Source: Sphingomonadales bacterium (GTDB lineage Bacteria > Pseudomonadota > Alphaproteobacteria > Sphingomonadales > Sphingomonadaceae). Taken from it: a stretch of 64,000 nucleotides of DNA. The notes beneath the pieces are model-generated. The model ran no database searches, had not been told where the DNA came from, and worked only from the letters and a program-made list of their open reading frames with translations. Below are positions 51,971 through 52,684 of the stretch, in pieces. Position numbers and translations under genes: made by a program. Within the stretch, counting starts at the first letter, position 1. Each line of letters starts with the position of its first letter. The DNA is taken from contig JAIXPC010000013.1 in assembly GCA_027486415.1 (NCBI GenBank), positions 62,001 to 126,000 on the forward strand, written 5' to 3'.

Positions 51971-52684
51971 TCAGGATGCCAGCCGGTCGGCCTGCTGCAT
52001 GATCTGGTCAAAGGCGCTGATGGCGCTGGTCGCACTTTCGTCGCGGCGCTGTGCCAGCTTCCCGCCATCCAGCAGGCCGCGCAGGGCCGCCCGCGCCCGC
52101 GCCACCCGGCTTTTCACGGTGCCGACAGCGCATTGGGCGATGGCCGCCACGTCCTCGCAGCTCATGCCGCTCGCCCCGATCAGGATCAGCGCCTCGCGCT
52201 GTTCGGGCGGCAGCTGCAGCAAGGCGCGCTGCAGATCGTGCAGGGCGATATGGCCTTCCTGCGCCGGCGGCACCGCCAGCAACAGATCGGCGGCCAGTTC
52301 GTCCCACTCGCCCTTGAAGCGCGCCCGTCTGACGATGGAGAAATAGGCGTTCCGCAAGATCACGTGAGTCCACGCCCGCATGCTCGATCCCGCCACGAAC
52401 CGGTCACGCGCCATCCACGCCTTCAGCATGGTTTCCTGAACCAAGTCGTCGGCCAGATCGGGATTGCCCGACAGCGACCGGCCGTAGGCGCGCAGGCGCG
52501 GGATCTCGGCAGCCAGCGCCGCCTTGAATGCCGCCGTGTCAATCGTGATGTCGCCATCGCCCAGCTGATCCAGCAGCGCCTGCAGGGCTGTCGGCAGCGG
52601 GGCGGCCGCGGCATCGGCAAACGCCAGCCGCAGATAGCCGCCGATATCGCCGGCCGGCAGCGGCGTGGTGATCGCGCTATCCAT
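51971..52684 (-). CDS. ecfG: EcfG-type sigma factor with N-terminal NepR-like segment
   Basis: Sigma2 FKAALAAEIPRLRAYGRSLSGNPDLADDLVQETMLKAWMARDRF; sigma4 LPPEQREALILIGASGMSCEDVAAIAQCAVGTVKSRVARARAAL; N-term IGGYLRLAFADAAAAPLPTALQALLDQL. Confidence 0.88.
   Translation of the reverse strand: MDSAITTPLPAGDIGGYLRLAFADAAAAPLPTALQALLDQLGDGDITIDTAAFKAALAAEIPRLRAYGRSLSGNPDLADDLVQETMLKAWMARDRFVAGSSMRAWTHVILRNAYFSIVRRARFKGEWDELAADLLLAVPPAQEGHIALHDLQRALLQLPPEQREALILIGASGMSCEDVAAIAQCAVGTVKSRVARARAALRGLLDGGKLAQRRDESATSAISAFDQIMQQADRLAS

What the first reader, a model, noticed from the sequence alone, without database searches (positions are those of the whole stretch)
51971..52684. Candidate NepR-EcfG fusion: sigma factor carrying its own anti-sigma-like segment
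Seen: aa 14-41 of the EcfG-type sigma read IGGYLRLAFADAAAAPLPTALQALLDQL (DNA 52562-52645). Established: NepR anti-sigma factors carry a core roughly LRxxYxxxxxEPVPDRFxxLLxxL, usually encoded by a separate small gene between phyR and ecfG. The two align without gaps over 24 residues (LR, aromatic, P-[VL]-P, hydrophobic, LLxxL). Here no separate nepR exists: phyR stop and sigma start overlap as ATGGATAG. Inference: the partner-switch may be intramolecular, with PhyR~P unmasking a self-inhibited sigma. The EP.PDR charged residues are lost (AP.PTA), so the segment could also be vestigial.
Basis: partly seen in the sequence, partly recalled or inferred. Interest (0 to 1): 0.85.

Follow-up and report, generated by a model that had tools for sequence, protein, structure and literature searches.

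The report
Stress sigma factor with built-in inhibitor
A bacterial stress-response switch protein (an EcfG sigma factor) carries, fused to its front end, a short piece descended from its own inhibitor NepR, and in several related bacteria this fused copy is the only inhibitor that can be found, so the protein may hold itself off until the stress regulator PhyR releases it.

Summary
Residues 13-43 of the EcfG-type sigma at 51971-52684(-) are a NepR-derived segment. A model built only from stand-alone NepRs scores it 15.2 bits; 0 of 20,000 shuffles come near. Many homologues pass Pfam's NepR cut-off, though the window's copy does not (16.7 against 25.7 bits). NepR signature residues L18, R19, F/Y22, P31, L37, L41 are conserved in 100-101 of 101 fusions, and dN/dS is about 0.10, so it is not vestigial.

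Two corrections. The genome does have a separate canonical phyR/nepR/ecfG locus on another contig. NepR-EcfG fusions are already known, from Methylobacteriaceae only (PMC4814048); this sphingomonad one arose independently (AU p=0.0026).

In seven relatives the fused segment is the only NepR detectable in the genome, with phyR kept beside it. In one relative lacking phyR the segment is gone too. Best reading: NepR works in cis as the PhyR-responsive brake. Intramolecular docking is untested; AlphaFold gave the two helices but no docked arrangement.

The parts
51971..52684 (-). EcfG-type ECF sigma factor with NepR-derived N-terminus (237 aa); the ATG at 52684 is the start that gives a whole sigma factor
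   Evidence: Pfam Sigma70_r2 and r4_2; homologues; tree within Sphingomonadales EcfG; no in-frame ATG/GTG/TTG between codons 1 and 81
52556..52648 (-). NepR-derived segment, aa 13-43 (two predicted helices, aa 14-27 and 32-42, with a PLP turn)
   Evidence: helices from AlphaFold
52532..52555 (-). short variable linker between the NepR segment and the sigma domain (aa 44-51); length and sequence vary between homologues
   Evidence: alignment; entropy 2.1 bits; dN/dS about 0.25
52319..52504 (-). sigma region 2 (aa 61-122)
   Evidence: Pfam PF04542
52082..52237 (-). sigma region 4 (aa 150-201)
   Evidence: Pfam PF08281
52677..53519 (-). phyR: PhyR-type anti-anti-sigma response regulator, overlapping the sigma gene by 8 nt
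   Evidence: NCBIfam NF006623 293.3 bits over its 240 cut-off; Pfam PhyR_sigma2, PhyR_sigma-like, Response_reg; phospho-acceptor D and K of the receiver retained
53648..53779 (-). entericidin-like lipoprotein upstream of phyR on the same strand
   Evidence: Pfam PF08085 32.9 bits
53811..53836 (-). GGAAC-N17-GGTT, a candidate sigma-EcfG promoter ahead of the entericidin gene and phyR
   Evidence: pattern scan; 12 GAAC-type matches in the window, so weak on its own

Best explanation
The gene encodes an EcfG-type general-stress sigma factor whose N-terminus is a NepR-derived two-helix anti-sigma segment joined by a short linker. Shown: the segment is NepR-derived, under purifying selection, and encoded directly behind phyR in the fusion loci examined; in several relatives it is the only NepR detected. 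Inferred: in unstressed cells the segment masks the sigma surface in cis (or in a neighbouring molecule), and phosphorylated PhyR, which mimics sigma, captures the segment and frees regions 2 and 4 for RNA polymerase. PhyR and the sigma-NepR chain would then form a two-protein partner switch. In the window's own genome a second, canonical three-gene module exists, so this is one of two stress modules there.
For: NepR homology without using any fusion in the model. In 101 fusions L18, R19, L37 are invariant, F/Y22 is always aromatic, P31 and L41 are 100 of 101; L18 and F22 match NepR L32 and Y36 of S. melonis, whose alanine mutants lose function (PMC6599016). dN/dS about 0.10. phyR lies directly upstream on the same strand in the 19 fusion loci examined (in G606 it is truncated). 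The fused segment is the only NepR found in G003, G152, G594, G598, G599 and G608, and in G087 apart from two chance-like fragments, each with an intact phyR. G595 has no PhyR and its sigma has lost the segment. In M. extorquens only EcfG1 without its NepR-like extension binds NepR in vitro (PMC4814048), as expected if the extension fills that site in cis. In this gene no internal start can give a sigma without the segment.
Against: No experiment. AlphaFold models of the window protein and of a strong homologue have the two helices (pLDDT about 80 and 86-89), but pTM is only 0.42 and 0.47 and the sigma2/sigma4 arrangement does not match NepR-bound sigma 5UXX (TM about 0.4). The window's copy is among the weaker NepR matches of its family and is below Pfam's cut-off. 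The acidic and basic residues of the EPxPDR core are gone. Several fusion genomes also keep a stand-alone nepR beside phyR, so the segment may have a subsidiary role. Full-length M. extorquens EcfG1 still came down with NepR in vivo.
Confidence: 0.55

Rival explanations
1. The segment does not inhibit its own sigma. It is a PhyR-binding decoy, as proposed for the sphingomonad NepR2: newly made sigma brings a NepR domain that soaks up PhyR~P and gives negative feedback.
For: S. melonis NepR2 binds PhyR but seems not to bind EcfG, and its L31 and F35 (window L18, F22) matter (PMC6599016); residues kept in the segment include those known to matter for PhyR binding; some fusion genomes keep a separate NepR.
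Against: In seven genomes no other NepR is detectable, which would leave sigma with no brake at all.
Confidence: 0.2
2. The segment is a shield: it fills the NepR-binding face so that stand-alone NepR cannot bind, giving a NepR-insensitive sigma under other control, such as transcription.
For: M. extorquens: full-length EcfG1 does not bind NepR in vitro, truncated EcfG1 does (PMC4814048); the window genome and several relatives have a separate NepR.
Against: Conserved linkage to phyR; most Sandarakinorhabdus fusion genomes have no stand-alone NepR detected to be shielded from; loss of the segment together with PhyR in G595.
Confidence: 0.15
3. The segment acts in trans: the NepR part of one molecule inhibits another copy or the canonical EcfG made from the second locus.
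For: A linker of about 8 aa in the window protein may be short for a NepR to wrap sigma2 and sigma4 of its own chain.
Against: Most fusion genomes have a single EcfG-like sigma, so hetero-inhibition cannot be general.
Confidence: 0.07
4. The segment is a vestige without function.
For: EPxPDR charges lost; below the Pfam cut-off in the window; the domain has been lost in some relatives (P0072 group, G595).
Against: dN/dS about 0.10 and near-invariant NepR positions across sequences as little as 57% identical.
Confidence: 0.03

Closest known systems
NepR-like N-terminal extension of sigma-EcfG proteins of Methylobacteriaceae (M. extorquens AM1 EcfG1-6; PMC4814048)
   Same: EcfG sigma with an N-terminal NepR-like extension, read by its authors as an old nepR-ecfG fusion
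   Different: Separate origin (AU test rejects one clade, p=0.0026). In M. extorquens no ecfG lies at the phyR locus and a separate NepR controls EcfG1; here the fusion sits in line with phyR and is the only NepR found in several genomes
Canonical PhyR-NepR-EcfG partner switch of Sphingomonas (S. melonis Fr1)
   Same: PhyR type, EcfG type and nepR<- ->phyR->ecfG gene order
   Different: NepR and EcfG are separate polypeptides; the Sphingomonas EcfG N-termini scanned have no NepR similarity
NepR2 of S. melonis Fr1 (PMC6599016)
   Same: NepR paralogue encoded close to ecfG; same key residues
   Different: Stand-alone protein; reported as a PhyR antagonist, binding to EcfG not shown
ECF sigma factors with fused regulatory extensions (such as ECF41, ECF42; reviewed in PMC8103513)
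   Same: Regulatory domain fused to an ECF sigma instead of a separate anti-sigma factor
   Different: Those are mainly C-terminal and are described as ligand-binding; here the fused part is a two-helix anti-sigma with a dedicated anti-anti-sigma next door

Membership tests
NepR anti-sigma factor (Pfam PF18557) | score over the curated cut-off of 25.7 bits | tested here: not met
   Window segment 16.7 bits as a 45-aa piece, 12.7 in the whole protein; homologues P0005, P0032, P0090, P0110 do pass at 26.5-30.9. It is called NepR-derived, not a curated PF18557 member
NepR anti-sigma factor (Pfam PF18557) | core LR..(Y/F/W).....xPxP..(F/L)..LL..L, two helices | tested here: met
   helices aa 14-27 and 32-42 in the model
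NepR anti-sigma factor (Pfam PF18557) | acidic/basic EPxPDR turn | tested here: not met
   APLPTA in the window; E at this place in 5 of 101 fusions
NepR anti-sigma factor (Pfam PF18557) | binds EcfG and phosphorylated PhyR | not testable with these tools
   needs binding assays; the two AlphaFold monomer models were inconclusive
EcfG (ECF15) sigma factor | ECF sigma with regions 2 and 4, grouping with EcfG proteins | tested here: met
   Pfam; within the Sphingomonadales EcfG clade; closest solved structure is EcfG orthologue RpoE of Bartonella, 5UXX
EcfG (ECF15) sigma factor | recognises GGAAC-N16/17-CGTT promoters | tested here: inconclusive
   a GGAAC-N17-GGTT box lies upstream of the entericidin gene and phyR, but 12 GAAC-type matches occur in the window
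PhyR (gene next to the fusion) | sigma-like domain plus receiver, NCBIfam NF006623 cut-off | tested here: met
   293.3 bits against 240; phospho-acceptor D and K kept
Methylobacteriaceae NepR-EcfG fusion | common descent with that fusion | tested here: not met
   AU test p=0.0026 against one clade; sequences

The most novel reading that the evidence does not exclude
Sphingomonads have evolved, independently of Methylobacteriaceae, a two-protein general stress switch: PhyR plus a sigma factor that is its own anti-sigma, with the stand-alone nepR then lost in several species. If inhibition is in cis, the three-partner switch has become an intramolecular one whose sigma to anti-sigma ratio is fixed at 1:1.
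Probability: 0.45. Interest if true: 0.78.

Novelty: new variant of a known kind. Interest (0 to 1): 0.6.

Why it matters
NepR-EcfG fusions were stated to be confined to Methylobacteriaceae, with unknown meaning (PMC4814048). A second, independent origin, with repeated absence of the stand-alone nepR and loss of the segment in a species without PhyR, gives natural replicates for asking what a fused anti-sigma does. The genus of the window holds species with the fused module, species with the canonical module and one genome with both, so it is a ready comparative system for how partner-switch stoichiometry shapes a stress response. It also shows a blind spot in annotation: in Polymorphobacter megasporae and Pacificimonas sp. 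WHA3 deposited proteins of 214 and 216 aa appear to start inside the domain and so hide it.

Tried and rejected
Chance resemblance: rejected. Vestige: disfavoured. Shared origin with the Methylobacteriaceae fusion: rejected. 'No nepR in the genome': wrong, one is on C14. Foreign origin of the C14 module: the first tree put its EcfG among distant alphaproteobacteria on a long branch, but it groups with the canonical EcfGs of its own genus when they are added (support 99.9), so this was dropped. One or several fusion events within sphingomonads: not resolved, one origin is compatible (p 0.56). AlphaFold as a docking test: two jobs, inconclusive, and no coordinates are given out, so interface residues could not be measured. 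Internal translation start giving a short isoform, as in M. extorquens: no in-frame ATG/GTG/TTG between codons 1 and 81 in the window gene. No paper in the open-access library held here was found to report a fusion in sphingomonads; subscription journals could not be checked.

Full report
1. What is there. On the minus strand an 843-nt phyR (52677-53519) overlaps by 8 nt (ATGGATAG) a 237-aa ECF sigma gene (51971-52684). PhyR is complete: NCBIfam NF006623 293 bits, sigma-like domain and receiver with the phospho-acceptor D and the conserved K. The sigma has regions 2 and 4. Upstream of phyR on the same strand lies an entericidin gene, and a CsbD gene lies at 49910-50098(-). csbD and ecnAB are direct general-stress targets in Sphingopyxis (PMC7083833), so the neighbourhood fits a general stress locus; this is context, not proof.

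2. The N-terminal segment is NepR-derived. Pfam NepR matches aa 13-43 at 16.7 bits, below the 25.7 cut-off. I built an HMM from 34 stand-alone NepRs, no fusion included: the window's 45 aa score 15.2 bits and none of 20,000 shuffles exceeds 9.2. In 10,113 six-frame background segments everything at 9.6 bits or more is a true NepR, stand-alone or fused. The N-termini of the roughly 120 non-fused EcfG proteins scanned score 0.9 or less, sphingomonad fusions 12.9-39.6. A sphingomonad NepR model finds the segment genome-wide at E 1.4e-5. Many homologues carry PF18557 above its cut-off together with sigma domains, and one is already named 'NepR family anti-sigma factor' by NCBI (P0090).

3. It is under selection. 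Over 101 fused proteins L18, R19 and L37 are invariant, position 22 is always F or Y, P31 and L41 are 100 of 101, G15 is 99 of 101, while the stretch before the motif and the linker vary freely. dN/dS over seven pairs is about 0.10 in the segment, 0.25 in the linker, 0.41 before the motif and 0.02-0.04 in the sigma regions. L18 and F22 correspond to NepR L32 and Y36 of S. melonis, whose alanine mutants lose negative regulation (PMC6599016). The charged EPxPDR turn is lost across the family, so its absence here is not recent decay.

4. Distribution and gene order. Sphingomonas loci read nepR<- ->phyR->ecfG with unfused sigma. In the fusion lineages the order is phyR->NepR::EcfG, with or without the divergent nepR. 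The window's genus is, by match of two loci to named proteins, Sandarakinorhabdus in the GTDB sense (inference). Of 24 genomes in it, eight carry the fusion, one (G595) a fusion-clade sigma without the segment, eight the canonical divergent phyR / nepR-ecfG locus; the window's genome, counted among the fusion carriers, is the only one with both; the rest have neither.

5. Replacement of stand-alone nepR. In G003, G152, G594, G598, G599 and G608 the fused segment is the only NepR match in the genome, and in G087 the only one apart from two partial chance-like fragments; their phyR is intact. Sensitivity is limited: in G597 the whole-genome search missed a weak divergent NepR that the local scan found. 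The local scans around phyR in the other genomes found none. In G595 no PhyR is detected, another gene stands where phyR should be, and the segment is gone; in G606 PhyR is truncated and the segment persists.

6. Origin. In the sigma tree the Methylobacteriaceae fusions group with Rhizobiales and Rhodobacterales EcfG, the sphingomonad fusions with sphingomonad EcfG; holding them together is rejected (p-AU 0.0026). One origin within sphingomonads, with losses, is compatible (p 0.56) but not shown. The canonical C14 module of the window's genome groups with the canonical modules of its own genus (support 99.9).

7. How it most likely works. Inferred: NepR in cis masks the sigma until PhyR~P takes the segment. 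The main support is that the fused segment stands alone as NepR in several genomes next to phyR, keeps the residues NepR needs, and disappears where PhyR is gone. The M. extorquens precedent, where only the truncated sigma binds NepR in vitro (PMC4814048), suggests that the extension occupies the NepR site. Not shown: docking, inhibition, or PhyR binding. AlphaFold predicts two helices (aa 14-27, 32-42; pLDDT about 80, and 86-89 in homologue P0110) but pTM is 0.42-0.47 and the arrangement of sigma2 and sigma4 does not match 5UXX, so it neither supports nor refutes docking.

8. Novelty. A NepR-like extension on EcfG is published for Methylobacteriaceae, with the statement that it is absent elsewhere. 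The sphingomonad fusion contradicts that statement, arose independently and differs in linkage to phyR and in apparently replacing nepR. I found no report of it in the open-access papers searched. Hence a new variant of a known kind, interest 0.6.

Noticed in passing
genome contig C14, L002:6955-10135: Second, canonical general stress module in the same genome: ecfG and nepR divergent from phyR, with a PAS-HWE histidine kinase close by. The window's genome is the only one of 24 in its genus seen with both module types.
   Followed up: partly
L202 (genome G595): Fusion-clade sigma that has lost the NepR segment in a genome where neither PhyR nor NepR was detected: what controls this sigma is unknown.
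   Followed up: partly
genomes G021, G108, G602, G605, G607, G610 of the same genus: No EcfG, PhyR or NepR detected at the thresholds used, some at 99% completeness: possible loss of the whole general stress response.
   Followed up: no
P0207 (Polymorphobacter megasporae), P0210 (Pacificimonas sp. WHA3): Deposited sigma proteins of 214 and 216 aa seem to start at an internal Met inside the NepR segment (PP-M-F), hiding the domain; probably a start-site annotation error (with loci L060 and L068).
   Followed up: partly
L063:5146, L064:5712, L066:5123: GAAC-N16-CGTT boxes in the 200-300 nt gap between phyR and the fusion gene in three relatives, candidate autoregulatory EcfG promoters.
   Followed up: no
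window 47119-49704 (-): Large hybrid protein with PAS, HisKA, HATPase, two receivers and a LuxR-type HTH, a few genes from the stress locus.
   Followed up: no
window 53899-53975 (+): tRNA-Pro (anticodon tgg) just upstream of the entericidin-phyR-sigma cluster.
   Followed up: no
window 58758-62740: Long degenerate tandem repeats of about 195 and 390 nt encoding Gly-rich units, as in a large repetitive surface protein.
   Followed up: no
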